64,000 nucleotides of DNA from Hydra vulgaris (lineage: Eukaryota > Cnidaria > Hydrozoa > Anthoathecata > Hydridae), in contig NC_088921.1 of the NCBI RefSeq assembly GCF_038396675.1, positions 45,042,501-45,106,500 on the forward strand, written 5' to 3'. Below the pieces are notes generated by a model, which had not been told where the DNA came from, did no database searches, and saw only the letters and a program-made list of their open reading frames with translations. Both the position numbers and the translations under genes were made by a program. This document shows positions 5,513-63,079 of this stretch, one piece after another. How positions within the stretch are numbered: the first letter of the stretch is position 1; every line of letters starts with the position of its first letter.

Positions 5513-16059
<10,547 letters not shown>

Positions 16060-26470: not shown

Positions 26471-27654
26471 TTGGTTCATCTGATCAAAGCCTTTGTGAAC
26501 CCTGGATTTAGTCTGAACCTGAGTTCTTATCCGTCTGGAATATGCAAAAGCTGCAAGTTAAAATTATATTTAAAACAGAAAGTTAAAGCTATCAGTAAAG
26601 TTGTGGAGACTTCCTGGATAAATGGTCGTGATCAAGTTTATAAGTTAGGAAGAATTAAACAAGAAGATGGCAACTACAACTGTGCTACTAACTGTCCTTG
26701 TATTCGTCATCCTTGCAACAACAAAAAAAACTTTTCAAAATCTTCACGCCTTAATTACTATAAAGAATCAAAATATCGCTGAAATATCTGTTGTTGATGA
26801 TGTTGTGTTGTTGGTAAAAAAATAAAACTTGCAACAGTAGGAAAAGCTCTTCATAATAATTTATACAGAGACCGATCACCTATAAGGCATACAAAAAGTG
26901 AAACAATCATGAACTTAAAGATAAACCATAATCTTCTAAAGTGTGCAGTGTTAAGAATAATGAAGGTGATAAGAAAAGACGTTGGACAATCTGGAAGACA
27001 GGAGAATACCTGGATAATTAAGGAGATAAGATCAGTATAAGATTTTCAACCAAGGAATCAGAAGTACACTAGGGTCAACAAAGTGACTATTTTGGGCGTA
27101 GTTTGAAACGTAGAAGGAGTCATAAAAATCAGAAAACACTTTTCCAACTACTTCAACTCAATCAATTAAAGTTTACCTTGGCTTCTGACCTCAAATTGAT
27201 CAACATCACCCAAGGATTATCAGTAAGTACCTTATTTCTTTATCTTGACTTAATATGCAATGTAAATTTTAAATAAGCAATATCTATAAGTTATTTTCTA
27301 TAATAAAGGGTTTCGGTGGAAAATAATCGTGTTGCTATTGTGATGGGCCGATGGACAAAAAAGGAGTTCAAAGGACTTTCGGATCACTAGCATATTAGTT
27401 CGAAAAATATTTGATAACAAAGCTTGTATGCAAACGCATTTTAAAAATGAAATCCATGTTTGTTGGACAAGAAATTGACTGAGAAAATTATCCAAATAAT
27501 TTCACCACCTGAATATCATATTTGTGAACACCATGTTAGTGAAAATATTGATCTCGTCTTCACTGAAAAAAATCTAAAGGAGTTTCTTGAAAAGAAAATG
27601 GTTATCAGGCATGGCTTTAGTGATGGTAGACTTTTGACTGAGTCAAAGTTTTAG
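26471..27654 (+). pseudogene. Coding-like relic, unrecognised
   Basis: The open frame 26471-26782 encodes 103 residues with clustered cysteines (YPSGICKSCKLKLYLKQK, then NCATNCPCIRHPC), which look like a zinc-binding pair set. Further on, HFSNYF / LASDLKLINITQGLS-like words appear near 27140-27225, followed by a GTAAGT. A frame at 27460-27654 (KKLTEKIIQIISPPEYHICE...) follows. The pieces lie in different frames with stops between, and no complete gene model works. I infer a decayed multi-copy gene or transposon-borne gene and give no function. Confidence 0.35.
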
Positions 27655-28479
27655 GATCTGTGGACGAAATGAAAATTTATTCTCCAATTGAATATTTAGA
27701 ATGTATTGAAACCCTGAGGAGGTTCAAAGAAGAAGTATCATTGCTTTTAAAATTGTTTTGAACACTTTTTTGAACGTTTTTAAGTAAATAAATACAATTA
27801 GGGGACTATTGATCTACCATTCTAATTAAAATTTAGAGACTCGATTATGTTAATACTATTATTTTCAGCAAGTTATTGTTTCGTTAACTATTGTTTGATT
27901 TAGTTGCTAAATGCTGCTTTGGCATGATGTTTCATTTAAAAAAATATGCCCATGATGTATTCGTAATGAAAATTTCTCTTCGATGTAATTTTCACATAAT
28001 CAGATTCTATCTCAAAAATCTCTCGTTAATCAGAAGATCCCGCTCTGTGTTACATTAGAACAAACATTTGAAGCAATGTATAGAAACTTAAACGAGACAC
28101 TGAAAAGGCTCGTTGTCTGAGAAAAACGTCTATCACGGTGAAAAGCTAAGAGCTCTGGTTGTTAAATACAATTCAACGAGATTGTAAGATAATTTTTCAG
28201 TATGTTTAGATTGAAAAAATACAAAATCTTTTTTGTAACATATTATAATATTTAAAATACTGTTTGTGGCATTTTATTTGTTTAAATTTGTTATCGGAGA
28301 TTTATTTATGTTTTGTGTGTGTCAGTAGAGACGGAAAATTTGTTACATTTTCAATAGATTTTTGACAAGAAGATAATTGGAACTAATATTTTGGTACAAA
28401 AAAAATGGCAAAAAATCACGGTAATCAGATTACTAGGGCAGGAATACCCTTTAAAAACGCCCCCTGCATCCTCCAGGTT

Positions 28480-28760
28480 GAGGGAAAGTAATTTTTGAAA
28501 AAAAAAAAATCTTTTATCTTGAATTAAATCAGAAATTGTAACTAGGTTTCAAATTTAATAAAAATTTATTTTGACGCTCAAAAGATACGGTCACATAATA
28601 TTTAGAACCCCCTCATTTTTTTGAAAGTTTTTAATAATTAGAAAAAAGGTCAAAAATAAAAAAAGGTGCGGTTTTTAATTCCTTTTTAAGGATTTATGTT
28701 TCCTGCCAACCTTCTCGAAAGAGTGGTTTAAAAAAATCTGAAGTAAAATTAACTTCAACC
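28480..28760 (-). repeat. Dispersed repeat R2, copy in unit 1
   Basis: Reverse-oriented homologue of 17020-17270 (shared words GACGCTCAAAAGATACGGTC, CCCCCTCATTTTTTTGAAAG). It begins with a GC-richer block, CGCCCCCTGCATCCTCCAGG. Confidence 0.6.
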
Positions 28761-29019
28761 TCTAAAAAAGTGGACTTTTACACTTATTTTTGCTTCCGAG
28801 AGCGTGTCACAAAGTTTCTTTAAAAAATCCTACTCTAATTATATTTTAAAGTAAATTATGTAATTTTTGATTAATGCTAAGTTTAAAAATTTATTCATTT
28901 TTTAATATTCACGGTTGTTCAAATTTAAAATCGCGTTTTTTTGTGAAGATAAATTTAATCTATTCTATTTTTTTTTTAAACATACAATTACAAAATTATA
29001 TCATATGAAATAACGAAGT

Positions 29020-31656
29020 TTTCCTCCTTAATTTACATGCCACCCTCACTTGCAATCAAGATGTCTGGGTTATTTAAGTGCTTGGAATATGGTGGAGTTA
29101 TCAAAACAAGAACTGCAGACAATATCTTTTGAAGTTGTCCATTCTAAGACAATTTCACTTTTTGAATAAACCAACACCTTCAGTTCAGTAGTTCTCTAAT
29201 AATGCGCTGATGTGGTATTTCAATAGATCTATTAAAAAGATTTTCCTCCTTGACAGGTTTTTTTCTCTCTACCGATTTTTAGAAGCCATTTAAACAATTC
29301 TCAGATTTCATAATGGGTAGTATTTGTCTAAATCCCCACCAAAAAAAATGATTTTTCTGTTTGCTGTTGCAAAAATATGTTTACAATGTCATAATGTTAA
29401 TAATGTCAGTGTTATCTTGTAATAAACTGTTTAAAACACATGCTTCACAAAAAGTTTATTATAAAAATTATAATAAACTTATAAAAATTATAATAAACTT
29501 TTTGTGTGTAATAACTTTTTCCTGTCTATAAAAACAAAACTTGAAAAAAAAAAAAAAAAAAAAGTTAAATTCATTTTTGCAAAAATGCATTCATTGATGC
29601 TAGTGAACTTGATTTAGAGGTTGAAATAGAGTCGCGTGTAGAATGAGTTTATCAAAAGAAATGAACCGCAGGGGAACTTGCATTTGATGACATACAAGAG
29701 AATCCTCTTAATTTTGTTCTGACAGATTGCGGTCTGATTTGCATAGCTTTGCTGTAAACTTTGATGGGCTCTCAAAAACACGAGATGAATTTGTAACGAG
29801 TACTAGTGACGGTGATTCAAAAAAATCAATTTCAGCCTTAAGAGTTGAATACTTTAACAAAAGCTGCAGAAAATGAAAATGACAGAGATTTTTAGAACTT
29901 TGAACGTTTTGTAGGGTCTTGAATAAATGTTAAAAATGTTGCTATAGTATTTCATGCAAATATTCCTTAAATGCAACCGCTTATTCAAATCTGTTTCAGG
30001 TTAACGAATATCTTATGACACTTGTATTCTTAAGTGAGTTGTGAATGGACATTTAGTTAATTAAAAGTTGTCTAAACTATGCTGCGTTCCTCACTAGTTA
30101 ACAACAAGCTTGAGACATTTATGTTGATGTCAATCGAGAAGGACATTTTTGAATCAATTTCTTGGATTCAGTTGACGACATGTTTGTGTAAAAATTCACT
30201 AGAGTTATCAAAGATGTTGCTTCTATAAATTATGTTAAGAAATTGCAATCAGTTACATTATAATTACCATTTCACCACAGTTACACCACATGATTCACCA
30301 CAGTTACACCACATGATTCACGAGCCACTTTTGATTTTTGTTTATCTTGAGTGAGTTAAAGTATTAACCATCATAACAAAGTTCATTATGTTATTATAAT
30401 TATTATTGTTATTATTATTATCACTTTCTGTATAACTATCATGTACATCAATTATATTATGCATTTGTAACACGACAGACTGATTTATATTGTAAGCCTG
30501 AATGAGTTTTGAACTTTTAAAGTGAACCATAACTTTACTTATTCAAATTTAAAAAATGCCTGATTTTTTTTTTATAAAAAAGATGTTTTTAAAAATGAAA
30601 AAATCAAAAATATTATACAAGCTTAAACAATTGGGCAATTGACTAGTGACTAGCAAGCAATATTCGTAATAATAAAGACAGCGGTTTGGCCACAAGAATC
30701 GCTAGCTAAACAAGCAAGCGACAACTGGTATCAGTTTAGCCATCAGGATCGCTTTCTAAAAAGCTAGTGATTAATTAGAAAAAATTCACATTACATTATT
30801 ACTTGTTCCCGTTATATTACATTATTAGTATTATAACAAAATATTAACAAAATCATTTACTATTATAGTTGTAGACAACTTAGTAAATTAAATTGACACA
30901 AGCCCCATTATATAAATTGCCAGGGTTTTTTATATACTTAAATATATATTTCAAGTTTATATTTAAGTATATAAAAAGACAGCGCCTTTAAGATTTTGAT
31001 TAACTTTTTAAATTAACTTTAACACTGCGCTCTCCTAGTTTTAAACCGTAAAAGCTATAAAATAATATTTTATAGCTCTACTATAATATTATAGGCGGTA
31101 AAAGCTATATCATAATATTATAACATGTCTACTGCTACCCACAGAGTTTTTTCATCTCATTTTATTGGCGGGAAAAAGCGCACTAGAACAAAACTGTCAC
31201 AAAAAAATTGTCACAAAAAAACACATTGTCACAAAAAAACTATTGATAGCAGTGGTTTAGTTGAAAACACCATACACAAAAAATAATGTTAATGAAAAGC
31301 ATCACATTCCCTAAAGGAAAATTTGCGGCAAAGTTTAAATAACTAAAACTTAACAAAACTAAATTAAACAATGATTAGACGCAACAATGAAAGCTACAAA
31401 GTATTGTTAAGTTCATAATAGACAAATTCAAACGTAGCAGTCTAATTTAAATCTCATATTGGTATTGAAAGTTATAAATTGTTCAAAGTCTTTTTTAATA
31501 TTTTTGACCAAAAAATATTTATTGCCATAGACACAAATGAGTTTTTATTCTGGGGAACACAAGAATCTCACCACAAAACAATTTGATTAATTGATATATT
31601 AGGACAGTCTTGAATAATTAACTTTTAATTATTTTAATTTATTTTTTATTTGATTA
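29020..31656. other. Unit 1 sequence between R2 and the hAT element
   Basis: Mostly AT-rich with local structure: an inverted repeat at 29448-29507, a 20-A run at 29544-29563, two tandem copies of a 23-bp word TTCACCACAGTTACACCACA... at 30271-30320, a related pair of GTTTGGCCACAAGAATCGCT-like words at 30683-30765, a palindrome at 30934-30978, and three TGTCACAAAAAAA words at 31195-31250. Coding-like scraps near 29585-29870 could not be assigned. The same holds at +7,642. Confidence 0.5.
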
Positions 31657-31664
31657 GTTTATAC

Positions 31665-34429
31665 CAGTGGTCGGCACCATATTTCCAAAGGAGCCCACTT
31701 GCAAAATTCTTGTTTTAGTTGCGGCCCACAGTAATAAATAAATTATATATAAAATAGGTTGTATTACCTATATAACAGAATATAGTATAGAATTAGATTA
31801 TAGAACTAATAATTGTATCAATACAAAATACATACTTAAGAAAAAAAACACATAAAACACAATTAAAAATTTTTTTAAAAGTATTTTGTTGTTGCAGCTA
31901 GCACAAGGTCATTCAAATGAGTGTCAGTCAGTCTTGTTCTGTAAACATTTTTTATTATTTTCATGGCTGAGAATGTTTGTTCGCATTGGTAACTAGTGCC
32001 ATACATACAGATAAGTCTATTTGCATGTTTTTTAAGAACTGGAAAACGTTCCTTCATGAAAGCATGCCAGAAAATAATTAAATTTTCACAAAAAGTGCCA
32101 TCTTCATCTTTTTTTGGTGCCTTTCTTCTCAACTCGTCGTCACATTGAAAGTTAATTAGTTCATCCTCTGCTTTTAAAATTTCAGCTTCTTCAAAGTCCT
32201 TTAGAATACTAATATCATTCATATCAAAGTCATATGGATAACACAAAAAAACCATATGTTTTTTTAAGTCTTTAAATTCATAAAATCTGTTTTCAAATTG
32301 ATCATACAGAGCAGTCACTATTAATGAAAATGACGATAACATTTCCCTTGATGGTTGACATTCATTTAAAGTAGGAAAATGAGTACAACTACCAGATGCA
32401 AATTGAGTTTTGTACAAATTAAGTTTTGTCTTCATCACAGTGATGTGGTTGATCAAATCACAAACCTGCACACGGCGGCCTTGTAATCTGTTATTCAGAA
32501 CATTGAATTGTACTATGATGTCGCAAAGGAAAGCCAGTTTACACTTAAACTTTTCAATAGATATTGTAATGAATGAAAATTTTTGAGTTTCCATGAACTG
32601 CAGTACACTTGGCAAACACTCCCAAAATCTGTTAAGAATATTTCCTCTTGATAGCCACCTAACCTGCAAAAAATAGACAAACATTTATTTTTGATTGTAA
32701 TGGTAATTTATTTATTTTTTGTCTATATACCTCTGAATGAAGAAGAAGATCACCATGTTCATCTTCATTTTGTTCCATTAGCGCACAAAATTGACGCCGT
32801 TTGAGTGCATTGGAGCGTATGTGATTGATTGTTTTTACTACAGCTGTCATTACATCATCAATTGTCGCAACTTTAGCGCACAGTGCTTCCTGGTGTATCA
32901 CACAGTGAAATGAAATAAATTTGTTAGGAAACTCACCACTATTTCTCAGCAAAGTAACAACTCCTCGAATTCTTCCAATCATAGCAGGAGCGCCATATGT
33001 GACAACTGAAGATATTTTTTGAAGAGGCACTTTCCTATTTTTTAATATTTTGAACAATTTGTGATAAATGTCTTGTCCAGTTGTAGTTGTTTCCAGTGGT
33101 TTAATTCCAAGCAGTTCTTCAAATAAACAACAATTCGTAGTGATAAAACGTGCATAAACACAGAGTTGTGCTTTACCGACAAGGTCAGTAGACTCATCGA
33201 GAGCGATACTCGCAAATTCAGCTTCTCACAGATTGTTTAACAGTTGTTCATAAACATTAACAACCATTTTCTCAATTTTTCGAGTAACTGTACGCGCGGA
33301 CAATTGCATACTTTGAAATTTGTCATGAATTTTTTTATCATTTGGGAAAAGAAATTTTGATGCTTCAATCATGCATTCTTTGATTATTTCACCATCAGTA
33401 ATAATTTCAGGTTTTTTGCTAATATCCATGACACCATATTAGAGGCACGAGTTTCACAATCAACACTGCTAGACATTTGTTGAAACAAATTTTTCCGTTT
33501 TTCTAAACAGCTTTTCAATGAGTCGTATTTTATTTTTCTGGTTGTTGAATCAAGAGGATATTTAGTATTGTACAATTCATGTTTTGATACGAAATGACGT
33601 TCAAGCTTGGTTCCTTTCATTTCACCAACAGTCTCATTACATATTAAACATAGAGCATTGTTACTTGGTCCCTCAGTGAAGAAATAAATCAGCTCCCATT
33701 TTTCATTCGACTGACGTGCATATTTACGCTTCGCTTCATGTTTACCTGGCATATCTTTGCAAGTTAATGTGTGTATTTATCAGAGTTGCAACTTCCGAGT
33801 AAAGCATCCAAACTCGATAACCGGTTACTCGATAACTGGTTATACTCGAGCAATTTTTGGTTATTCAATTTCCAAATATTGCGTCTTAAAAAACCGGTTA
33901 TTTAAAACAATAAAGATTTGCCGACTATTTCTTTTATAATACTTATTTCGTAAAAAATCTAAACAATGTAGTATTTTTATTCAAGAAAAGTACGAAAAAC
34001 ATTCTAAAGACGATAACTTTTACCGCTGGTATATTTGATATGAAATAGTTTTTACAGCGTTAAATTAATTAAATTGTTGTTTGAGATACTTCATCTGAAC
34101 AAATTCGAATGTTCTAATTATTTTTGACGTGCTTTTCGAATGTTTTTATTTTTGTAGAGTAATTTTTTAGCATGATTTAACTTTTAAGTATAAGGATCTT
34201 ATTTGAAGTCTTAAAGTGCTACAGTGTTAGAGTGCATTAAAATTATTTTTTTACTATGCCTAAAATGACAAGATTTGGTGTTAGGGAGTATTTTATAAGG
34301 AGGCTTTATAATTTTTACAGCCTGGAAAACAACTAAAAGGCCCACAACTACACTACTTTGTATATTATGCAGTTAGGTGGCTTGGGACCCACAAATTATG
34401 TACAAAGGCCCACAATTTGCCGACCTCTG
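31665..34429 (-). mobile_element. hAT transposon with 8-bp target duplication, copy 1
   Basis: 2,765 bp. Ends CAGTGGTCGGCA (left) and TGCCGACCTCTG (right) are 11/12 inverted matches of the hAT/Charlie-type CAG..GGTCGGCA terminus. Flanks GTTTATAC (31657-31664) and GCTTATAC (34430-34437) form an 8-bp duplication with one mismatch. Subterminal 'GGCCCACA' words occur near both ends. The transposase gene inside is dead, so the element is non-autonomous now. Confidence 0.9.
31875..33752 (-). pseudogene. hAT transposase pseudogene (ZBED5/GTF2IRD2-like), copy 1
   Basis: Minus strand from ATG 33752. A BED zinc finger comes first (CLICNETV ... LERHFVSKH, residues about 34-58). Next are the nuclease segments IALDESTDLVGKAQ and VVTYGAPAMIGR, the CVIHQEALC motif, and the C-terminal hAT dimerisation region YGTSYQCEQTFSAMKIIKN ending at 31875. 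A 67-bp GT-AG intron (32664-32730) joins LLLHSE to VRWLSRG. Three lesions: a frameshift around 33430, an in-frame TGA at 33226-33228, and TAT at 32995-32997 where the family has the catalytic Asp of the 'TDGAP' motif. It cannot make active enzyme. Relatives include transposase-derived vertebrate genes such as ZBED5 and GTF2IRD2. Confidence 0.9.
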
Positions 34430-34734
34430 GCTTATACAGACAACTTGCAAGTTCATTTGCACCTCTACCAACCATAAATTCATTCCAAAGTGCACAATAA
34501 GTTTTGTTATTAAATGAACAGTGGGCTATGAAATTATAACAATTTAATTTTCTTTTATAATAGAATGCATAATAATTGGAAGGGGAAATACACTAAATAG
34601 CTACTGTGATTATTATTATTTAGCTTGTATTAAAAATCTCCATTAAAAAACCTTAGAAATTGCTGATCACAAGCTGTTGTCAATCTATTTTGAAAATAAG
34701 ATTTTTTTTAAAATCAATTAACTTTCAGAAAAAA

Positions 34735-35119
34735 TAGATCAACTGAATCAGCTAATCAACAACTGCTAGCTAAATGGAGAACTTCTTTGAATAACAATAA
34801 ATTTGTTATAACAGTAATGCTAGACCTTAAAAAGACATGGGAAACAATTAATAGAAAGATTATTATAGAAAAAAGTTTCACGATTAAAGGTAAAGTTCTA
34901 AACTAGATTTTAGACTATTTTTCAATGAGAACTCAAGTAGTCAAAATAAAAAGTGAAGAGTCAAGTGAATTGGTTTGTGATATAGGGGTTCCACAGGGAA
35001 AGGGCGGATCCGCTACTTTTTGGTCTTTAAGATTTCCAGACATGGAGCAAACTCTAAACATTTATATGCTTAAACTTATGTCAAATAAGAATGATTTGCA
35101 AAAAAGTGCAATGAATTGA
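34735..35119 (+). pseudogene. LINE reverse-transcriptase relic, copy 1
   Basis: Plus-strand translation reads FVITVMLDLKKTWETINRKI (the RT 'f.DlkkAFDtvnh' block with AFD changed), IKGKVLN, a stop, then RTQVVKIKSEESS and DIGVPQGKG (the 'GVPQGS' block). Order and spacing fit RT domains 2-4 of a non-LTR element. A stop at about 34901 and loss of similarity after VPQG show decay. It lies just outside the hAT right end. Confidence 0.7.
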
Positions 35120-36121
35120 GCCTGGGAACAAAAAATCCACCAAATTTTACCCCACCCCCTACCTTCCTGCCCCAAACGTGAGAGCAACAAGTTTATAAAA
35201 TAATTTTTTACTATTCTCGACTAGACTTATATTTATAGATAATTCTTTAGTTTCATAGTATCCTTAGGTTTTTAAAAAATATGACTATAAAAAATTTGAA
35301 ACACAATATGAGATGGTTACAAATTTTGGTCAAAGTGCATGTGGAACAAAAAAGTAGACCGTGTAAAAAAATTAAGTTTACATGTTTTACCTTTTTCCAC
35401 AGCTGCTGATTTCAATAAAATGAGTGTAATACACTGTTATATCGTGAATTATTTTGCCACCACCTTTTGCTGATGATCATAGACAAATAATAGTTTTAAA
35501 TAAGATAGACAACTAGATTTACGTTTCAAAGAAGTGGTTTGAAATATTTTTTTTATATTTATTTAAAATATTTTTTTGAATTTAAACAACTTTATTAATT
35601 ATCTTTAAAGTATTTATTTATTATTCATTTTAAAAGTTTGTTATTTATAACAAACGAGGTAAAATAAGCATGGCTTAATCAACTAATACCAACTGTTTTC
35701 TTGTACATTCATTTCATATCGGAAAAATATTTTTTTAATAAAACAATTTAAATGTGATGTGTGACCTTAAATATAAATTTAGAAAAGCTAAGAGCTCTGG
35801 TTGTTAAATACAATTCAACGAGATTGTAAGATAATTTTTCAGTATGTTTAGATTGAAAAAATACAAAATCTTTTTTGTAACATATTATAATATTTAAAAT
35901 ACTGTTTGTGGCATTTTATTTGTTTAAATTTGTTATCGGAGATTTATTTATGTTTTGTGTGTGTCAGTAGAGACGGAAAATTTGTTACATTTTCAATAGA
36001 TTTTTGACAAGAAGATAATTGGAACTAATATTTTGGTACAAAAAAAATGGCAAAAAATCACGGTAATCAGATTACTAGGGCAGGAATACCCTTTAAAAAC
36101 GCCCCCTGCATCCTCCAGGTT

Positions 36122-36402
36122 GAGGGAAAGTAATTTTTGAAAAAAAAAAAATCTTTTATCTTGAATTAAATCAGAAATTGTAACTAGGTTTCAAATTTAA
36201 TAAAAATTTATTTTGACGCTCAAAAGATACGGTCACATAATATTTAGAACCCCCTCATTTTTTTGAAAGTTTTTAATAATTAGAAAAAAGGTCAAAAATA
36301 AAAAAAGGTGCGGTTTTTAATTCCTTTTTAAGGATTTATGTTTCCTGCCAACCTTCTCGAAAGAGTGGTTTAAAAAAATCTGAAGTAAAATTAACTTCAA
36401 CC
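36122..36402 (-). repeat. Dispersed repeat R2, copy in unit 2
   Basis: Same as 28480-28760, shifted by 7,642. Confidence 0.6.
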
Positions 36403-39306
36403 TCTAAAAAAGTGGACTTTTACACTTATTTTTGCTTCCGAGAGCGTGTCACAAAGTTTCTTTAAAAAATCCTACTCTAATTATATTTTAAAGTAAATTA
36501 TGTAATTTTTGATTAATGCTAAGTTTAAAAATTTATTCATTTTTTAATATTCACGGTTGTTCAAATTTAAAATCGCGTTTTTTTGTGAAGATAAATTTAA
36601 TCTATTCTATTTTTTTTTTAAACATACAATTACAAAATTATATCATATGAAATAACGAAGTTTTCCTCCTTAATTTACATGCCACCCTCACTTGCAATCA
36701 AGATGTCTGGGTTATTTAAGTGCTTGGAATATGGTGGAGTTATCAAAACAAGAACTGCAGACAATATCTTTTGAAGTTGTCCATTCTAAGACAATTTCAC
36801 TTTTTGAATAAACCAACACCTTCAGTTCAGTAGTTCTCTAATAATGCGCTGATGTGGTATTTCAATAGATCTATTAAAAAGATTTTCCTCCTTGACAGGT
36901 TTTTTTCTCTCTACCGATTTTTAGAAGCCATTTAAACAATTCTCAGATTTCATAATGGGTAGTATTTGTCTAAATCCCCACCAAAAAAAATGATTTTTCT
37001 GTTTGCTGTTGCAAAAATATGTTTACAATGTCATAATGTTAATAATGTCAGTGTTATCTTGTAATAAACTGTTTAAAACACATGCTTCACAAAAAGTTTA
37101 TTATAAAAATTATAATAAACTTATAAAAATTATAATAAACTTTTTGTGTGTAATAACTTTTTCCTGTCTATAAAAACAAAACTTGAAAAAAAAAAAAAAA
37201 AAAAAGTTAAATTCATTTTTGCAAAAATGCATTCATTGATGCTAGTGAACTTGATTTAGAGGTTGAAATAGAGTCGCGTGTAGAATGAGTTTATCAAAAG
37301 AAATGAACCGCAGGGGAACTTGCATTTGATGACATACAAGAGAATCCTCTTAATTTTGTTCTGACAGATTGCGGTCTGATTTGCATAGCTTTGCTGTAAA
37401 CTTTGATGGGCTCTCAAAAACACGAGATGAATTTGTAACGAGTACTAGTGACGGTGATTCAAAAAAATCAATTTCAGCCTTAAGAGTTGAATACTTTAAC
37501 AAAAGCTGCAGAAAATGAAAATGACAGAGATTTTTAGAACTTTGAACGTTTTGTAGGGTCTTGAATAAATGTTAAAAATGTTGCTATAGTATTTCATGCA
37601 AATATTCCTTAAATGCAACCGCTTATTCAAATCTGTTTCAGGTTAACGAATATCTTATGACACTTGTATTCTTAAGTGAGTTGTGAATGGACATTTAGTT
37701 AATTAAAAGTTGTCTAAACTATGCTGCGTTCCTCACTAGTTAACAACAAGCTTGAGACATTTATGTTGATGTCAATCGAGAAGGACATTTTTGAATCAAT
37801 TTCTTGGATTCAGTTGACGACATGTTTGTGTAAAAATTCACTAGAGTTATCAAAGATGTTGCTTCTATAAATTATGTTAAGAAATTGCAATCAGTTACAT
37901 TATAATTACCATTTCACCACAGTTACACCACATGATTCACCACAGTTACACCACATGATTCACGAGCCACTTTTGATTTTTGTTTATCTTGAGTGAGTTA
38001 AAGTATTAACCATCATAACAAAGTTCATTATGTTATTATAATTATTATTGTTATTATTATTATCACTTTCTGTATAACTATCATGTACATCAATTATATT
38101 ATGCATTTGTAACACGACAGACTGATTTATATTGTAAGCCTGAATGAGTTTTGAACTTTTAAAGTGAACCATAACTTTACTTATTCAAATTTAAAAAATG
38201 CCTGATTTTTTTTTTATAAAAAAGATGTTTTTAAAAATGAAAAAATCAAAAATATTATACAAGCTTAAACAATTGGGCAATTGACTAGTGACTAGCAAGC
38301 AATATTCGTAATAATAAAGACAGCGGTTTGGCCACAAGAATCGCTAGCTAAACAAGCAAGCGACAACTGGTATCAGTTTAGCCATCAGGATCGCTTTCTA
38401 AAAAGCTAGTGATTAATTAGAAAAAATTCACATTACATTATTACTTGTTCCCGTTATATTACATTATTAGTATTATAACAAAATATTAACAAAATCATTT
38501 ACTATTATAGTTGTAGACAACTTAGTAAATTAAATTGACACAAGCCCCATTATATAAATTGCCAGGGTTTTTTATATACTTAAATATATATTTCAAGTTT
38601 ATATTTAAGTATATAAAAAGACAGCGCCTTTAAGATTTTGATTAACTTTTTAAATTAACTTTAACACTGCGCTCTCCTAGTTTTAAACCGTAAAAGCTAT
38701 AAAATAATATTTTATAGCTCTACTATAATATTATAGGCGGTAAAAGCTATATCATAATATTATAACATGTCTACTGCTACCCACAGAGTTTTTTCATCTC
38801 ATTTTATTGGCGGGAAAAAGCGCACTAGAACAAAACTGTCACAAAAAAATTGTCACAAAAAAACACATTGTCACAAAAAAACTATTGATAGCAGTGGTTT
38901 AGTTGAAAACACCATACACAAAAAATAATGTTAATGAAAAGCATCACATTCCCTAAAGGAAAATTTGCGGCAAAGTTTAAATAACTAAAACTTAACAAAA
39001 CTAAATTAAACAATGATTAGACGCAACAATGAAAGCTACAAAGTATTGTTAAGTTCATAATAGACAAATTCAAACGTAGCAGTCTAATTTAAATCTCATA
39101 TTGGTATTGAAAGTTATAAATTGTTCAAAGTCTTTTTTAATATTTTTGACCAAAAAATATTTATTGCCATAGACACAAATGAGTTTTTATTCTGGGGAAC
39201 ACAAGAATCTCACCACAAAACAATTTGATTAATTGATATATTAGGACAGTCTTGAATAATTAACTTTTAATTATTTTAATTTATTTTTTATTTGATTAGT
39301 TTATAC

Positions 39307-42071
39307 CAGTGGTCGGCACCATATTTCCAAAGGAGCCCACTTGCAAAATTCTTGTTTTAGTTGCGGCCCACAGTAATAAATAAATTATATATAAAATAGG
39401 TTGTATTACCTATATAACAGAATATAGTATAGAATTAGATTATAGAACTAATAATTGTATCAATACAAAATACATACTTAAGAAAAAAAACACATAAAAC
39501 ACAATTAAAAATTTTTTTAAAAGTATTTTGTTGTTGCAGCTAGCACAAGGTCATTCAAATGAGTGTCAGTCAGTCTTGTTCTGTAAACATTTTTTATTAT
39601 TTTCATGGCTGAGAATGTTTGTTCGCATTGGTAACTAGTGCCATACATACAGATAAGTCTATTTGCATGTTTTTTAAGAACTGGAAAACGTTCCTTCATG
39701 AAAGCATGCCAGAAAATAATTAAATTTTCACAAAAAGTGCCATCTTCATCTTTTTTTGGTGCCTTTCTTCTCAACTCGTCGTCACATTGAAAGTTAATTA
39801 GTTCATCCTCTGCTTTTAAAATTTCAGCTTCTTCAAAGTCCTTTAGAATACTAATATCATTCATATCAAAGTCATATGGATAACACAAAAAAACCATATG
39901 TTTTTTTAAGTCTTTAAATTCATAAAATCTGTTTTCAAATTGATCATACAGAGCAGTCACTATTAATGAAAATGACGATAACATTTCCCTTGATGGTTGA
40001 CATTCATTTAAAGTAGGAAAATGAGTACAACTACCAGATGCAAATTGAGTTTTGTACAAATTAAGTTTTGTCTTCATCACAGTGATGTGGTTGATCAAAT
40101 CACAAACCTGCACACGGCGGCCTTGTAATCTGTTATTCAGAACATTGAATTGTACTATGATGTCGCAAAGGAAAGCCAGTTTACACTTAAACTTTTCAAT
40201 AGATATTGTAATGAATGAAAATTTTTGAGTTTCCATGAACTGCAGTACACTTGGCAAACACTCCCAAAATCTGTTAAGAATATTTCCTCTTGATAGCCAC
40301 CTAACCTGCAAAAAATAGACAAACATTTATTTTTGATTGTAATGGTAATTTATTTATTTTTTGTCTATATACCTCTGAATGAAGAAGAAGATCACCATGT
40401 TCATCTTCATTTTGTTCCATTAGCGCACAAAATTGACGCCGTTTGAGTGCATTGGAGCGTATGTGATTGATTGTTTTTACTACAGCTGTCATTACATCAT
40501 CAATTGTCGCAACTTTAGCGCACAGTGCTTCCTGGTGTATCACACAGTGAAATGAAATAAATTTGTTAGGAAACTCACCACTATTTCTCAGCAAAGTAAC
40601 AACTCCTCGAATTCTTCCAATCATAGCAGGAGCGCCATATGTGACAACTGAAGATATTTTTTGAAGAGGCACTTTCCTATTTTTTAATATTTTGAACAAT
40701 TTGTGATAAATGTCTTGTCCAGTTGTAGTTGTTTCCAGTGGTTTAATTCCAAGCAGTTCTTCAAATAAACAACAATTCGTAGTGATAAAACGTGCATAAA
40801 CACAGAGTTGTGCTTTACCGACAAGGTCAGTAGACTCATCGAGAGCGATACTCGCAAATTCAGCTTCTCACAGATTGTTTAACAGTTGTTCATAAACATT
40901 AACAACCATTTTCTCAATTTTTCGAGTAACTGTACGCGCGGACAATTGCATACTTTGAAATTTGTCATGAATTTTTTTATCATTTGGGAAAAGAAATTTT
41001 GATGCTTCAATCATGCATTCTTTGATTATTTCACCATCAGTAATAATTTCAGGTTTTTTGCTAATATCCATGACACCATATTAGAGGCACGAGTTTCACA
41101 ATCAACACTGCTAGACATTTGTTGAAACAAATTTTTCCGTTTTTCTAAACAGCTTTTCAATGAGTCGTATTTTATTTTTCTGGTTGTTGAATCAAGAGGA
41201 TATTTAGTATTGTACAATTCATGTTTTGATACGAAATGACGTTCAAGCTTGGTTCCTTTCATTTCACCAACAGTCTCATTACATATTAAACATAGAGCAT
41301 TGTTACTTGGTCCCTCAGTGAAGAAATAAATCAGCTCCCATTTTTCATTCGACTGACGTGCATATTTACGCTTCGCTTCATGTTTACCTGGCATATCTTT
41401 GCAAGTTAATGTGTGTATTTATCAGAGTTGCAACTTCCGAGTAAAGCATCCAAACTCGATAACCGGTTACTCGATAACTGGTTATACTCGAGCAATTTTT
41501 GGTTATTCAATTTCCAAATATTGCGTCTTAAAAAACCGGTTATTTAAAACAATAAAGATTTGCCGACTATTTCTTTTATAATACTTATTTCGTAAAAAAT
41601 CTAAACAATGTAGTATTTTTATTCAAGAAAAGTACGAAAAACATTCTAAAGACGATAACTTTTACCGCTGGTATATTTGATATGAAATAGTTTTTACAGC
41701 GTTAAATTAATTAAATTGTTGTTTGAGATACTTCATCTGAACAAATTCGAATGTTCTAATTATTTTTGACGTGCTTTTCGAATGTTTTTATTTTTGTAGA
41801 GTAATTTTTTAGCATGATTTAACTTTTAAGTATAAGGATCTTATTTGAAGTCTTAAAGTGCTACAGTGTTAGAGTGCATTAAAATTATTTTTTTACTATG
41901 CCTAAAATGACAAGATTTGGTGTTAGGGAGTATTTTATAAGGAGGCTTTATAATTTTTACAGCCTGGAAAACAACTAAAAGGCCCACAACTACACTACTT
42001 TGTATATTATGCAGTTAGGTGGCTTGGGACCCACAAATTATGTACAAAGGCCCACAATTTGCCGACCTCTG
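39307..42071 (-). mobile_element. hAT transposon with 8-bp target duplication, copy 2
   Basis: Same element in the second duplication unit, including the identical GTTTATAC/GCTTATAC flanks (39299-39306 and 42072-42079). The second copy therefore arose by duplication of the region, not by a second transposition. Confidence 0.9.
39517..41394 (-). pseudogene. hAT transposase pseudogene, copy 2
   Basis: Shares the frameshift (about 41072), the in-frame TGA (40868-40870), the Asp-to-Tyr codon (40637-40639) and the 67-bp intron (40306-40372) with copy 1. All lesions predate the duplication. Confidence 0.9.
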
Positions 42072-42376
42072 GCTTATACAGACAACTTGCAAGTTCATTT
42101 GCACCTCTACCAACCATAAATTCATTCCAAAGTGCACAATAAGTTTTGTTATTAAATGAACAGTGGGCTATGAAATTATAACAATTTAATTTTCTTTTAT
42201 AATAGAATGCATAATAATTGGAAGGGGAAATACACTAAATAGCTACTGTGATTATTATTATTTAGCTTGTATTAAAAATCTCCATTAAAAAACCTTAGAA
42301 ATTGCTGATCACAAGCTGTTGTCAATCTATTTTGAAAATAAGATTTTTTTTAAAATCAATTAACTTTCAGAAAAAA

Positions 42377-42761
42377 TAGATCAACTGAATCAGCTAATCA
42401 ACAACTGCTAGCTAAATGGAGAACTTCTTTGAATAACAATAAATTTGTTATAACAGTAATGCTAGACCTTAAAAAGACATGGGAAACAATTAATAGAAAG
42501 ATTATTATAGAAAAAAGTTTCACGATTAAAGGTAAAGTTCTAAACTAGATTTTAGACTATTTTTCAATGAGAACTCAAGTAGTCAAAATAAAAAGTGAAG
42601 AGTCAAGTGAATTGGTTTGTGATATAGGGGTTCCACAGGGAAAGGGCGGATCCGCTACTTTTTGGTCTTTAAGATTTCCAGACATGGAGCAAACTCTAAA
42701 CATTTATATGCTTAAACTTATGTCAAATAAGAATGATTTGCAAAAAAGTGCAATGAATTGA
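42377..42761 (+). pseudogene. LINE reverse-transcriptase relic, copy 2
   Basis: Same as 34735-35119, shifted by 7,642, with the same stop. Confidence 0.7.
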
Positions 42762-43423
42762 GCCTGGGAACAAAAAATCCACCAAATTTTACCCCACCCC
42801 CTACCTTCCTGCCCCAAACGTGAGAGCAACAAGTTTATAAAATAATTTTTTACTATTCTCGACTAGACTTATATTTATAGATAATTCTTTAGTTTCATAG
42901 TATCCTTAGGTTTTTAAAAAATATGACTATAAAAAATTTGAAACACAATATGAGATGGTTACAAATTTTGGTCAAAGTGCATGTGGAACAAAAAAGTAGA
43001 CCGTGTAAAAAAATTAAGTTTACATGTTTTACCTTTTTCCACAGCTGCTGATTTCAATAAAATGAGTGTAATACACTGTTATATCGTGAATTATTTTGCC
43101 ACCACCTTTTGCTGATGATCATAGACAAATAATAGTTTTAAATAAGATAGACAACTAGATTTACGTTTCAAAGAAGTGGTTTGAAATATTTTTTTTATAT
43201 TTATTTAAAATATTTTTTTGAATTTAAACAACTTTATTAATTATCTTTAAAGTATTTATTTATTATTCATTTTAAAAGTTTGTTATTTATAACAAACGAG
43301 GTAAAATAAGCATGGCTTAATCAACTAATACCAACTGTTTTCTTGTACATTCATTTCATATCGGAAAAATATTTTTTTAATAAAACAATTTAAATGTGAT
43401 GTGTGACCTTAAATATAAATTTC

Positions 43424-44140: not shown

Positions 44141-44301
44141 TCAGTCAATAAAATTATCTTTAGGTTCAGGTAATGAACGTCTGCAGTACCTCTTTTTGCT
44201 CATATCCAAACAACATGGACCATTATTAGGACAATCTAACTCCGAAATACATTGTATCTGAGGATAATAAAACGGATCACGCAACGGACACGATCGTGTT
44301 A
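44141..44301 (-). CDS. Terminal exon with second, WAP-like domain
   Basis: 161 bp to the TGA stop. RSCPLRDPFYYPQIQC, ELDCPNNGPCCLDMSKKRYC: six cysteines, keeping the CP start and the D.C....CC core but lacking two positions of a full WAP. The tail RRSLPEPKDNFID follows. Confidence 0.82.
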
Positions 44302-47300
44302 CTACAAAAAAGAGGTTTGAAAAATTATTAAAGTTTTTTTTATTAAAAAAATAAGTTGAATAATTTTTTATCATACCTAAAAATTGTGTTCAAAATATTT
44401 CAATAACCAAATATTAAAAAATAAATAATAATTAAACCGCATTTCTTTTAAAAAATCTAAAAAAAATTAAATTATAAAAGTTGAAAACCTTTCGGAGTGC
44501 ACATACGCATACTAAACTCGCAAGAAGTTGTGCAACAAGCAAAACCAAATCCACAGTTTTCGTCAGTATTGCAGGGATATGAAAGAAGTAAACGAATACA
44601 TCGAAGTTGAGAAGGATGAGGACATTCTCCTTAAAAAAAAAAATTTTCTCCAGTCATTAACTTGAAAAAAGTGATATGCAAAATATTCATCTTAATTATG
44701 TTGCATTTTAGCGCTTAATCGTGTTTTATAGAGCAATATAATGTGGAATTTCATTAACTATTATAATGCAATATAATATTAAACTATATTTAATATTATA
44801 CAAAACTATATTTAACATTATATCGTAAAATGTATCATTTATAAACTAACAAATGTTAAAAAAGTAGCAAACCATTTTTTCCGTCAAGGTTATGCTCATA
44901 ATTCTGCAATCCTCTTGAAATAACAGACTTTTTAACATCTTCATGATGTTGGTTAGCTTTCAAAATGAACTGCGGTCTCGGGATAATTGGATTAGGATAC
45001 TGCGATTTTTTTGAAAACCCTTTTTCTTGGTTTAACAAAGTAGATTTTTTATCTAAGCTTGAAACATATACTGGTATAACAGGACTTTCAACTTGATTAA
45101 CTTGAATATCTTTAGAAGTTCTGGCAGCAAATCGATAAGAATCATCTAAAACAATTATAAGAAACAAGTAATAATAATAATAATAATAATAAATTGTTTG
45201 CTATATTCACAAATTTTTTTTAAATAAATTTTATAAATTTCAGTATTTTAGAAATATAAAAAACTTTTTTGACTAAAGTTATTATTTATTCTTTCGGTTA
45301 TTTTTCCTTTTTTAATGTATTTGGTTTTGGGATAAAATCCCCTATTAAACGCTGTTTTACTACTGAAAAAGTCCTACAATTTTAGTTTTTTTTATAAACA
45401 GTGTACTAGAACTGCACTTTTTTTTGTAGGCTATAATTTCTTTTTTTTTTTTAAGCTATAATCACTTTTTTTGTAAGTTATAATCTTTTTTTTTGTAAGC
45501 TATAATCTCTTTGTTGCTTTTTTAAATTAATTTTTAATTTTAATTTTAATTCATCTAAGATATGACGTTAATGCATTTAAAATGCATTAACGTCGTATAT
45601 TAATGTCGCATCTTACGTCGTATATTAACGTCGTATCTTACGTCGTATGTCAATGTCGTATCTTAGATGAATTCAAAATAATCATAAAAAAGGTAGCAAA
45701 CTAATAAAAATTGTAAGAAAAAAAATTGTAAGAAATTTGGTGTTGATACTGACAAAAGAAGCAAATAACTAAAAAAAAAATGGATAAAATTGAAAGTAAA
45801 TTTTTTTTATTAAACTGAGAACAATCTTCTTTATGCAACAATTATTTCTTTTAACCCATAACTAAAGTGGGAATTAAAACTGCACTTTTATAATTATGTT
45901 TCAGATAGATTTTTCTTAAAAGTACTATTTTTTTGAAAATGAATGCTTCTATTACTCACAAGTCAATTATTTTTATATACCCTGGTGAGAAATGAGCTAG
46001 CGACTAGCAAGGGTTATACACCCTGGTGAGAAATGAACTGGTGACTAGCAAGCAATTAGGTAGCTTTATAGCAATTTTTGAGCAATTCTTTTATTCTTAC
46101 GTTTGATTTTTAGTATTATATTTTTATGATAATAATTAAACATTACAATTTTAATATGACAGTTATCTCGATGCAGTTTTGTTGCTATCGATATAACTAC
46201 AATATATTATGAGCTACATATCACAACATTGTAGTTAGCTACAACATAACAACAAATTTGTAGCTAGTTGATGGTTACATATTGCATCTGTGTAGCTAGC
46301 AATATTATTACATTATATTGATAGTTACAGATAGTAGGTATATAGCTAACTAAAACTTAACAACAAATCTAAAGTTGAAGTTGCTATATAGTTAAAGCTA
46401 GTTGAAGGCTACATATCATAGCTTTTTAGCTAGCAATGTTGTCACAATATATTGATAGTTAAATATTGTAGCTTTGTTGCTAGCTACTACATAATGACAA
46501 TTCTACAGCTACTATTTGACTACAGCTACTATTTGACTACAGCTCTGCTAAAGCACTGTGTAAATACATATTGCCAGTTTACCACCGCTTTTTAGATAGC
46601 GCTATTATTATTTTATTATTGTAGCTAACTATAACGTAATTAAAAGTCTGTATCTATCAACATGGATGTTTTAGATAAAACTACGAAAATAATAAAAAGC
46701 TAGCTGACCAGACCCGTAAAAATACAGGTCTTTGAAAATACAGACATTTGTATATTATGCTATTCAAATGGCAGAACTAAGAAGATCTTAGACCATAAAA
46801 AACTATAGATGCGACCTTATCTATAAAACGCTAATCTAAATGTTAAGGCAAAAAAATTTTGTGCAGTGACATCAGTTTGTGGCAAAAAAAAACTTTTATA
46901 CATCAAGTTTTTTATACATCAAGTTTTTGCATTTATCTTACATTTTTTGTTTAATTTTAATCATAGTACATACGATTTCACGGATAAGAGTTTATATCTA
47001 TTACAATAGTAATAAATAGTTTTAATGAAACAGCAATTACTATATTTAGTCTTCATTAGAATCCCATAAAAATATATTCTATATATTTTTAATAAAAATC
47101 TGCCTTTTAACACATATATGTTCAATTTCTTTATTCTGGCCATATATATTTATAGCAAAAAAATAAATATAGCTAAAAAGACATTTAATTGTTATAATAA
47201 AATTGAAAGCTTTTTTCTAGCTACAAGTTTTTTTTATTTATTTATTTTGCCTCCACAACAGCACCTTCTGGAGTAGCAGAACTGTTTAATTAAATTTTTT

Positions 47301-50300
47301 CTTTATTGAGTTTCAGATCATAATTTTTTTTCAGACCACCCACAGCTTATTAGGAATAATTACCTGAGAGTATTAATAACATAAGTGTCTCAATCATGAT
47401 ACATATGTAACAAATTTCTTCCAGTGTTTTAATGTTTTTAGCATTTTTAGCTTTTTTAAAAATCCTTTTATTTGTTGTGTATAATATCTTTATATATCTT
47501 ATGTATATAATATCTATAAAACTATCAAGTGTTTTATTTTAAAAAAATCGAAAAAGATTAAAAAAAAAGTTGCTAGTGGTAGGATTTCAACTACAGTTTT
47601 TTCATTCAGAAGCTCTGTGAGTTAACCACTCGGCCAGGCTGACATGTTGACTAATGAAAATTTTAAAACTATATAATAAATAAGACTTTATAAAAGCAAA
47701 ATAAATGTTATAGATCAAAATTATGAAGATGTTGCCACAATGCAATTTCCAAGTGAAAGTAAAGTTGTATAACAGTATAATAATATACATATAAGTAAAG
47801 TATAAATATCAAGTGCAAATTTTTGCAAGCTAATAACTAGCTTTCATAATATATATGGTCATATATATGTATATATTATATATATGTATATATAATATAT
47901 ACATATATATACACATATATACATTTATATACACAAAATTAGAACTACTAACGCGCTATATCCTTGAATAAAACAATTTAATAAAATTAATTAAATTGTT
48001 GAAATTCAACTATACTGCAAGTGGTAAAAAGTTAAATAAAGTAAAATTGTCGCATGAAGTTTTTTAAATTTTTAGTTTTCTATGTATATGATAGTTAATA
48101 TACTTAATATTTTAATAACTGAATTTAAAAAAGAACTGAAAAAAATAGGCAAATAAACAACAAATCAAAAAAGTATTTCCTTAAAATTTTATTTTATGTT
48201 TTATGGTTTTCCTCTTTATAAAATGTTACATGTAATTTTATTGTTTATTTGTAATGTAAAGTTGTTTTTAACTTGTAGGATATCAGTAAGTCAGATAAAG
48301 TAAAATTTAAACTTTGAACACTTATGTAACAAAACAATTGTTGCAAGAGTAAAAGTAGGTCAAGAGTTTACTTCAGGATGGCAAACAAAAAAGGCTTTTT
48401 TATAAACGAGAAAATATGTGTCAAGAGACTAAAATAGTGCAGAAAACACTTAAACTGGACTTTAGATTAATGTGCCATATGGACAGATGAGTCACCTTTC
48501 ATGCTACAATATGGTAATCAAGAAAGAATTTGAAAAAAAGGGAGCAATTTAATCTAAAGTGTGCATGTGCCACAGCTAAACATGATAAAAATATCATGGT
48601 TTGGGGGTGCATTTGTTGCTCATAGAGTGTGAATTATGTACAGAGTTCATGGAATCTTGGACCAAGATAAGTACTATTATAAATTCATGGAATCTTGGAC
48701 AACATAACTACTACTATAATTTCATGGAATCTTAGACCAACATAAGTACTATTATAATTTAATTTATCGCTTAAAATCAAGATTACCATATCTATTTCCA
48801 AATAAAAACAATTTCAGCAAGACACCATTATTCCACCTCATTCTTCTTATAAGTATTTCAGCCTTGTTACTAATTCCAATAAAAACTCTTTCTTAGATGG
48901 TATAGACACATTTTTAATTGAGTATTGTAAGTTTAATTTCTCCATCTTATGGACAACTTTGAGTAGAGTGCTAGACTAGTGGAGTGTTTATATCATTTAA
49001 TATGGTGTTGTTTTAAACAATAATAATAATAATGAAACTTATTTATAACTAAAATCGAAAAAGAAAATACTCCACTAAACCACCATTGTTATATTAACAT
49101 TTCATTATTTCATTTCATTTTGAAATTTTATTATTTCATTTTGAATTGTAAGTACAATAGCAAATTTCCTTTCCTCATTTGATACCGGAGATTTATCCTG
49201 AATTATTTCCATGCCAACTTTTGTTTCCATGAAGTTATTAAAACTCATAACACTAATTGTAGTACTCATGCCACTATAATTCTAGTTGCAGTATTAACAT
49301 TTATTTTTTAATTTTGTAATTTATGGCCAATGATTGCTATTAGGATGAAACTTAAACACACATAAAATAACTGTGTTTTTACTCATTTTTTTAAAATATT
49401 GGAAAATAACTAATATATATAATAAATAATAAATAAATCAGTTGTTCTCTATGTTAATGTTCAATTCTATATACAAATGTTGGATTCAATTTCTATCCCA
49501 TAATCAACATTTTAAAAACATTTTAAAAATAAATTTATAATGATTTTAATTGTACTCTTTATAAATTTAGTTTAAGTTTGAGTAAAAATAAATATGTATA
49601 ATTATTCTGATGCAACAGCTAATAAATACAAAAGTTTATTAAAACAATTTTTTCAATCATATACTAATTTTTAATATTTGCTTATACATTCATAAGCTTA
49701 TTAGCTTATGAATGTATAAGTAAATATTAAAAATTAGTATATGATTGAAAAAATATTGTATCAAAATACTGTTGTACCACAAAGTTTAAGTATATTTGAT
49801 GCAATAATTGATACAATAATTGAATACAATTAAAAATAACTGAGATACTGTTGAGCAGCATAATTATGCAATATTTTATTTCAGAGTTTTACTTATTTTG
49901 TTCAAACAATCAACTTTTTTAAAAGAAGAACATTATAAAGCTTTTATAAAGTTTATAAAAGTACAAAAAAAAACCTTTTATTTTCAATGGGATAGTTAAA
50001 AAAGTTCTACGTAATAGCTGATGTTAATAATAAAACATAATAATAGTAAACAAGCTTATGTATACTGTCTGTTTTTTTTTATTAAAAAATAAATACCTGG
50101 TTCAGGAATCCAGGACAGAGTATCTTCTATAAATTTAAAAAATAATTTTATTGTACTTTGGACACAAACAATATTAATTTATTTAAGAAAATTATAAATT
50201 ATAAAAAACAAGCTTTAAACAACCAAAGAAATGAAACCAAAAAAGGTACTAACCCTCAATTGGAATGCTAGATAACTTTTGCTTTTTAACAAGTGATAAC

Positions 50301-53300: not shown

Positions 53301-53857
53301 CAACATATCATCAATGCTATTTATAAACAGCTGTTGTATACTGCTATTATCATCAATGTTTTTCTTAAGTAATGTTCTACCTTATTCATCAACTTTTTTT
53401 AATATCTAAAAATTTTAATATCTATCATGAATAAACTAAATCCAAGAGTCATTGTTTCCTGAATTTTGAAAATATAAAAATGTATTCGTTTAGTTAGATC
53501 TGAACTTACAAATTGTATTCAAGAACATTCAGTTAGATCTGAACTTACAAATTGCATTCAAGAACATTCAGTTAGATCTGAACTTATAAATGTTTAAAAT
53601 GTAAGCAAAAGGTTCCATTTTTAACATGTCTGGTACGGTGATCAACTTGTTTTGTTGTGCAGTGTTTGTGAAGACTTCAAAGTTAAAAAGTAGAAAAATA
53701 TTTTAAAAATATGTTTGTTTAAAGTGTGGGTAACTATAACAAATGTATTGATAATATGTTCAGTGTTAAAAATATTGTATTGACAATTTAACAACAACAA
53801 TATGTGGAAAACAAGTATTAAGAGTATTGCAATTAATATTATCATTAATATTATTGC

Positions 53858-53921
<64 letters not shown>

Positions 53922-62507: not shown

Positions 62508-63079
62508 CTAAATGAAATATTTTGGCTTAAGGTATTAAAATATAGCAGAAAGTGAAAAGCTACTCAAGCTGTTCAACAGAAAATTACTTTTTTTTATTTG
62601 ATAAAATATAAAACATTTAATATTTTAAAATATTTTTATATGATTGGTTGAGCTAAAATATGATTGATTAAGCAAAATTCCATAATAAATTAAATCTTTA
62701 AGTAATTAAAATTAAAATTTGATTTATGAAAACCTGTTTTCATAAATATTAAACTATTAATGGGATTTTCATAGGTCTTTTTTGCCACAATGATTATAAG
62801 TACAGTCTTTATAACAACCTTGCCATATTATATATTGGAAACATTCATAACATATAACTTTAAACTTAGATCTGCATAAACCTTTATTCTTACATTGTTA
62901 AAATTAGACCTCTGTGCAAAATTTTGTTGTTGTTATTGCATTGATTGATTTTTTATTGTTGTTATTAAAATTTTCAATATATTATAAAACAGTTCAAAAT
63001 ATTTTGTCTTGTAATTTTTAGTTTATAAAACATTCCATACTTGATCCATGATATCATTTAATAAATTTAAAAACTTTCA

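What the first reader, a model, noticed from the sequence alone, without database searches (positions are those of the whole stretch)
28140..43422. Apparently identical 7.64 kb head-to-tail duplication
Two 7,641-bp copies separated by one base show no difference wherever I compared them, even in a 20-A run and in neutral intergenic DNA. Borders coincide with no transposon end and have at most 1-2 bases of microhomology. Either it is a very young tandem segmental duplication or an assembly artefact (overlapping contig ends joined twice). Full identity in such AT-rich, homopolymer-rich DNA makes an artefact quite likely.
Basis: seen in the sequence. Interest (0 to 1): 0.75.

Follow-up and report, generated by a model that had tools for sequence, protein, structure and literature searches.

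The report
Probable false duplication from overlapping contigs
A 7.6-kb stretch of what is probably the Hydra genome stands twice in a row, letter for letter, and this is more likely a joining error in a gap-filled genome assembly than a real duplication of the chromosome, although only the raw reads can settle it.

Summary
Window 28140-35780 equals 35782-43422 at 7,641 of 7,641 positions, with a single A (35781) between the copies. The window lies at 45.04-45.11 Mb of contig C2 in a 911.5-Mb, 15-contig genome. This fits the gapless Hydra vulgaris AEP haplotype HydraT2T_AEP (912 Mb), whose authors joined PacBio HiFi contigs with 3D-DNA and then filled 1,523 gaps with raw Nanopore reads. The identification is inferred, not proved.

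The unit is ordinary DNA: the right part of an old dispersed repeat, other intergenic DNA, and one hAT transposon with its target-site duplication. Relatives of the old repeat run unbroken through the left border (8 of 9 fetched); the abnormal join seen is the inner one at 35780-35782.

Perfect identity, read-overlap length and a one-base join are what two overlapping HiFi contig ends would give when laid side by side and gap-filled (the VGP's 'homotype' false duplication). I put this at 0.65. A genuine, very young tandem duplication with a one-base insertion is the main rival (0.3). Sequence alone cannot decide; I had no reads, 105 haplotype or second AEP assembly. Either way the finding is ordinary.

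The parts
28140..35780 (+). first copy of the 7,641-bp unit
   Evidence: identical to 35782-43422 at 7,641 of 7,641 positions
35781..35781 (+). single-base spacer (A) at the abnormal join; differs from both native neighbours (T at 28139, C at 43423)
35782..43422 (+). second copy of the 7,641-bp unit
27031..28759 (+). old dispersed repeat that spans the left border; 8 of 9 fetched relatives align unbroken through 28139/28140; its right part is repeated at 35782-36401
31665..34429 (-). hAT transposon (ends CAGTGGTCGGCA / TGCCGACCTCTG, 8-bp target-site duplication GTTTATAC / GCTTATAC, 7 of 8), wholly inside the unit; transposase in several separate open pieces on the minus strand
   Evidence: Pfam Dimer_Tnp_hAT E 7.8e-8; other near-full-length matches to its 1.9-kb part at 94-97%; ends read
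39307..42071 (-). second, identical copy of the hAT transposon
   Evidence: (offset 7,642)

Best explanation
An assembly artefact. Two HiFi contigs that overlap exactly by 7,641 bp at their ends (left flank + unit, and unit + right flank) were placed side by side by Hi-C scaffolding without the overlap being recognised. The gap between them was then 'filled' with one base and polished, leaving unit-A-unit in a nominally gapless chromosome. The real chromosome would hold one unit. Shown here: exact identity, a native left outer border, an abnormal inner join, no further full copy among the scored matches, and a published assembly procedure of the right kind for a genome of this size. Inferred: that the window comes from that assembly, that 35780-35782 is one of its filled gaps, and that the real locus has one copy.
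For: Zero differences in 7,641 bp including A20 and non-coding DNA. The genome of 911,502,276 bp in 15 contigs fits HydraT2T_AEP: 912 Mb, 15 chromosomes, gapless, built from 4,420 HiFi contigs for both haplotypes, 3D-DNA joins, and 1,523 AEP gaps filled with raw Nanopore reads. That is one filled gap per about 600 kb, 0.107 expected in a 64-kb window, at about 13.5x HiFi depth per haplotype. The VGP paper describes this form: overlap-layout contigs dovetail, the duplicated length is often that of a corrected read, and scaffolding gives tandem copies with a gap between (passages). BiSCoT found 515 overlapping regions, 24.5 Mb, in one human assembly (passages). The inner join is the abnormal one. 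The two haplotypes of the F1 are described as well diverged, so an allelic duplicate should show differences; an overlap within one haplotype explains their absence.
Against: No read or depth data were seen. The spacer A is not what short-read polishing of an N would be expected to give (T or C, the native neighbours), although a noisy Nanopore fill or an untemplated read-end base could give A (inference). Among 309 other listed pattern sites no second exact same-strand pair 2-25 kb apart was found, against about 3.9 expected if every gap were a 7.6-kb overlap. Published false duplications are mostly allelic: heterotype was the major source in three older assemblies, by an order of magnitude except in one, BiSCoT's overlaps are 'usually' allelic with a mean of 47 kb, and the VGP's illustrated homotype example was a FALCON bug, later fixed. 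Some gap closers trim overlapping contig ends (PBJelly); the tool used here is not named. Only assembly size, contig number and lack of gaps tie the window to the named assembly.
Confidence: 0.65

Rival explanations
1. A genuine, very young tandem segmental duplication in the AEP strain (or in the AEP x 105 F1 clone), formed by end joining or replication template switching that joined the unit's end to its start with one untemplated A, carrying a hAT element along. It would probably be neutral: among the 6 of 7 ORFs of 60 aa or more in the unit that I scanned, only the hAT domain passed its Pfam cut-off.
For: The geometry (native left border, novel inner join, no microhomology plus a 1-base insertion) is also that of a simple tandem duplication. 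The spacer is neither native neighbour. Reads of 8 kb or more could resolve an exact 7.6-kb repeat, so a HiFi contig could hold a real one (inference). The source paper suggests local tandem duplication of some transposon subfamilies in AEP, hAT families being among the 14 active ones. No second exact pair was seen at 309 sampled sites.
Against: Zero differences bound divergence at about 0.04%, including an A20 run; the one other young duplication looked at in this genome (an inverted 3,082-bp pair on C15) carries 7 differences. The assembly route can make false pairs of exactly this form.
Confidence: 0.3
2. A heterotype (allelic) false duplication: the AEP and 105 alleles, or two AEP alleles, placed in tandem.
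For: The sequenced animal was an AEP x 105 F1 hybrid and allelic errors are the commoner kind in other assemblies.
Against: The haplotypes are described as well diverged (single k-mer peak); 7,641 of 7,641 identical bases does not fit unless the haplotypes are identical here.
Confidence: 0.04
3. Transposon-mediated or circle-reintegration event with the unit as the mobile piece.
For: The unit carries a hAT element.
Against: The hAT element lies wholly inside with its own ends and target-site duplication; the unit's borders are 3.5 kb and 1.4 kb away from it. The left border lies inside an old repeat. No terminal repeats or target-site duplication are seen at the unit's borders, and no other full copy of the queried parts appears among the scored matches.
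Confidence: 0.01

Closest known systems
False homotype duplication by overlapping contig ends (VGP, PMC8081667, Extended Data Fig. 5b legend, passage seen)
   Same: tandem, without haplotype differences, about the length of a read or read overlap, one abnormal join
   Different: here there is no gap but one base between the copies, as could follow gap filling; the contig boundary was not seen
Artefactual duplication of overlapping contigs in optical-map scaffolds (BiSCoT, PMC7649008, passages seen)
   Same: overlapping contigs joined without merging, so the shared region is doubled
   Different: there 13 N mark the join, overlaps average 47 kb and are usually allelic; here no N and no difference
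Young tandem segmental duplication by end joining or template switching (general knowledge, recalled)
   Same: head-to-tail copies, novel inner join without homology, 1-base insertion
   Different: no divergence at all, and no reads at hand to support it

Membership tests
False homotype duplication (overlapping contig ends) | adjacent direct copies without haplotype differences | tested here: met
   7,641 of 7,641 identical, one-base spacer
False homotype duplication (overlapping contig ends) | length near a read or read overlap | tested here: inconclusive
   7.6 kb would fit HiFi overlaps (recalled), but the HiFi read lengths of this project were not seen
False homotype duplication (overlapping contig ends) | join is a contig boundary or filled gap | not testable with these tools
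   pre-fill contigs and AGP not available; the paper reports 1,523 filled gaps in this haplotype
False homotype duplication (overlapping contig ends) | reduced read depth, no reads across the join | not testable with these tools
   no reads available
Genuine tandem segmental duplication | native outer borders and one novel inner join | tested here: inconclusive
   left border native in 8 of 9 fetched relatives and inner join novel; right border lies in DNA without full-length relatives, so untested
Genuine tandem segmental duplication | reads spanning both copies and the join | not testable with these tools
   no reads available
Transposon or composite element | terminal repeats and target-site duplication at the unit's borders, or dispersed whole copies | tested here: not met
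   borders read; no other full copy of the queried parts among scored matches
hAT transposon (element inside the unit) | hAT dimerisation domain, short terminal repeats, 8-bp target-site duplication | tested here: met
   Dimer_Tnp_hAT 7.8e-8; ends and 7-of-8 duplication

The most novel reading that the evidence does not exclude
A real tandem duplication so recent that not one of 7,641 positions, A20 run included, has changed: perhaps arisen within the laboratory lineage or the clonally grown F1 hybrid, and so a datable case of duplication without homology in a clonal, apparently non-ageing animal.
Probability: 0.3. Interest if true: 0.25.

Novelty: not a real feature. Interest (0 to 1): 0.1.

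Why it matters
If an artefact, it is a practical warning: a 'gapless' chromosome can hide overlap duplications at filled gaps, which inflate transposon counts and look like recent tandem expansion. A scan of the whole assembly for exact tandem pairs with 0-1 base spacers would list them. If real, it is an ordinary young segmental duplication of mostly transposon and intergenic DNA.

Tried and rejected
Rejected: chance (7,641 exact bases); transposon-border or composite-element origin (the hAT lies inside with its own target-site duplication; the left border is inside an older repeat); a source copy elsewhere in the genome (none at 100% among the scored matches); an allelic duplicate (no differences, haplotypes described as diverged). 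No tRNA and no Rfam match at gathering score was found in the window. I first took the round contig lengths (multiples of 2,500) for an assembly oddity. Of eight end stretches fetched, two are wholly N and two partly N in amounts that fit 2,500-base blocks, which I take for withheld DNA, so I draw nothing from them.

Led nowhere: a genome survey for further exact tandem pairs. Listed pattern sites were 78 (which contains by construction the 43), 33, the first 100 of 1,228, all on C1, and the first 100 of 108: 311 in all, including this pair's two; the lists were compared by eye. Apart from this pair, one same-strand pair fell within 2-25 kb (20.9 kb apart) and its letters differ, leaving 0 exact candidates at 309 sites; the rough 95% ceiling is 1% of sites. 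Set aside: one same-strand pair only 192 bp apart on C5, and opposite-strand pairs within 25 kb, one on C9 and five on C1. The reported methods of the first HiFi assembly (10.1126/sciadv.abi5884) are not held. Paper searches were seen as listings. Passages only were seen in PMC8081667, PMC9516828, PMC8389630, PMC8848313, PMC7649008, PMC3504050 and PMC8257795; in PMC12220107 I saw the outline, passages and sections 5 and 18. The pecan paper (PMC8257795) collapsed 44 adjacent alternative haplotypes at contig ends, an allelic case, so I do not count it as support.

Full report
OBSERVATION. The window holds a maximal exact direct repeat, 28140-35780 = 35782-43422, 7,641 of 7,641 bases, offset 7,642, with one base (A, 35781) between the copies (identity re-read). 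The bases just outside (T at 28139, C at 43423) match neither each other nor the spacer, so there is no microhomology at the join. The coordinates of the finding are correct to the base.

WHERE IT LIES. The genome search places the window at contig C2, 45,042,501-45,106,500, of a genome of 911,502,276 bases in 15 contigs. The window is 73% A+T and contains no N (counts). Of eight end stretches fetched, two (C6 and C13) run out in TTAGGG repeats, one (C14) holds 33 TTAGGG but does not end in them, three (right ends of C2, C3, C12) hold none, and two (left ends of C2 and C3) are wholly N. Size, contig number and lack of gaps fit HydraT2T_AEP, described as 912 Mb, 15 chromosomes, gapless (PMC12220107, sections 5 and 18); that Hydra DNA is this A+T-rich is recalled. 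The identification is inferred; no name is attached to the genome here.

HOW THAT ASSEMBLY WAS MADE. 4,420 contigs (1.75 Gb, both haplotypes) from 23.6 Gb of HiFi reads of an AEP x 105 F1 hybrid; 3D-DNA and Juicebox; 1,523 gaps in the AEP haplotype, all reported as filled with raw Nanopore reads; Illumina polishing. This is one filled gap per about 600 kb, 0.107 expected per 64-kb window, and about 13.5x HiFi depth per haplotype. The filling tool and the treatment of overlapping contig ends are not named in that section.

ANATOMY OF THE UNIT. The left border lies inside an old dispersed repeat (27031-28759; 78-83% to the nine relatives that I fetched out of those listed). Eight of the nine align without a break through 28139/28140, and one (L014) has a gap there. 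At the inner join the same nine align only from 35782-35786 onward. So the left outer border is native and the inner join is novel. The right border lies in DNA whose only full-length place in the genome is this one, so it cannot be tested with relatives. Inside the unit is one hAT transposon, 31665-34429, with short terminal repeats, an 8-bp target-site duplication matching at 7 of 8 and a hAT dimerisation domain. Its 1.9-kb internal part has two 100% places, which are this pair, and other near-full-length matches at 94-97% (40 of 78 candidates scored). Part of the rest has diverged relatives (29710-30553 at 76-80%); 34430-35780 gave no other match among the 40 of 2,915 candidates scored. No tRNA and no Rfam match was found in the window. 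To the right, minus-strand exons with TSP1_ADAMTS and CUB domains lie at 54-63 kb. Of the seven ORFs of 60 aa or more in the unit six were scanned, and only the hAT domain passed its cut-off.

ARTEFACT OR REAL. Both readings predict native outer borders and one novel inner join. Three things favour the artefact. First, zero differences: the 95% ceiling is about 0.04% divergence, whereas overlapping ends of HiFi contigs from one haplotype are expected to be identical by construction (inference from how string-graph assemblers work, recalled). The one other young duplication looked at, an inverted 3,082-bp pair on C15, has 7 differences; at that rate 17 would be expected in 7,641 bp. It is a single comparison. 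Second, the inferred assembly route can make exactly this. The VGP legend describes dovetailing contig ends that scaffolding turns into tandem copies with a gap between, often a corrected read long. BiSCoT counted 515 overlapping regions, 24.5 Mb, in one human assembly. Ko and others report false pairs sometimes connected by incorrect gap filling. Third, an allelic explanation fits badly because the two haplotypes are described as well diverged.

Against the artefact: the spacer A is neither of the native neighbours that polishing an N with short reads would suggest. It could come from a noisy Nanopore fill or from an untemplated A at a read end, which A-tailing in library preparation can leave (recalled, not tested); a one-base insertion is also usual enough in end joining (recalled). 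The survey of 309 other listed sites showed no further exact same-strand pair, where about 3.9 were expected if every filled gap were such an overlap; so the error is not at every gap, but a minority of gaps is not excluded. In the published surveys most false duplications are allelic rather than same-haplotype, the VGP's illustrated homotype case was a FALCON bug, and at least one gap closer trims overlapping ends (PBJelly).

VERDICT. Probability 0.65 for a homotype false duplication at a filled gap, 0.3 for a real and very young tandem duplication, 0.05 for the rest. Reads, the pre-fill contigs or the other Hydra assemblies would decide at once. Either outcome is ordinary biology or ordinary assembly error, hence the low interest score.

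Noticed in passing
L045 379-3460 and 6388-9469 (G000:C15:57356801-57366800): An inverted pair of 3,082 bp at 99.77% (7 mismatches, no gaps) with about 2.9 kb between the arms: a young palindromic duplication or a transposon with very long terminal repeats.
   Followed up: partly
window 44144-62563, minus strand: Exons of a secreted matrix-type gene: two TSP1_ADAMTS exons and a CUB domain split over two open pieces at 61494-62563, a further CUB exon at 54469-54708, and a WAP-like stretch at 44144-44389 below the Pfam cut-off. Whether all belong to one gene was not tested.
   Followed up: partly
window 9645-11274, plus strand: A pogo/Tigger-like transposase (name recalled) in two open pieces: CENP-B_N and Tc5 helix-turn-helix, then DDE_1 (E 4e-39).
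   Followed up: no
window 6398-8496: A cluster of 42-bp tandem units and inverted arms (81-97% complementary) next to long TA runs.
   Followed up: no
G000:C1 near 18.00, 22.19, 23.21 and 23.38 Mb: The pattern GATWCATTAGA occurs four times as pairs, minus then plus strand, 8.8-10.5 kb apart (first 100 of 1,228 sites), which may mark a large element with inverted ends.
   Followed up: no
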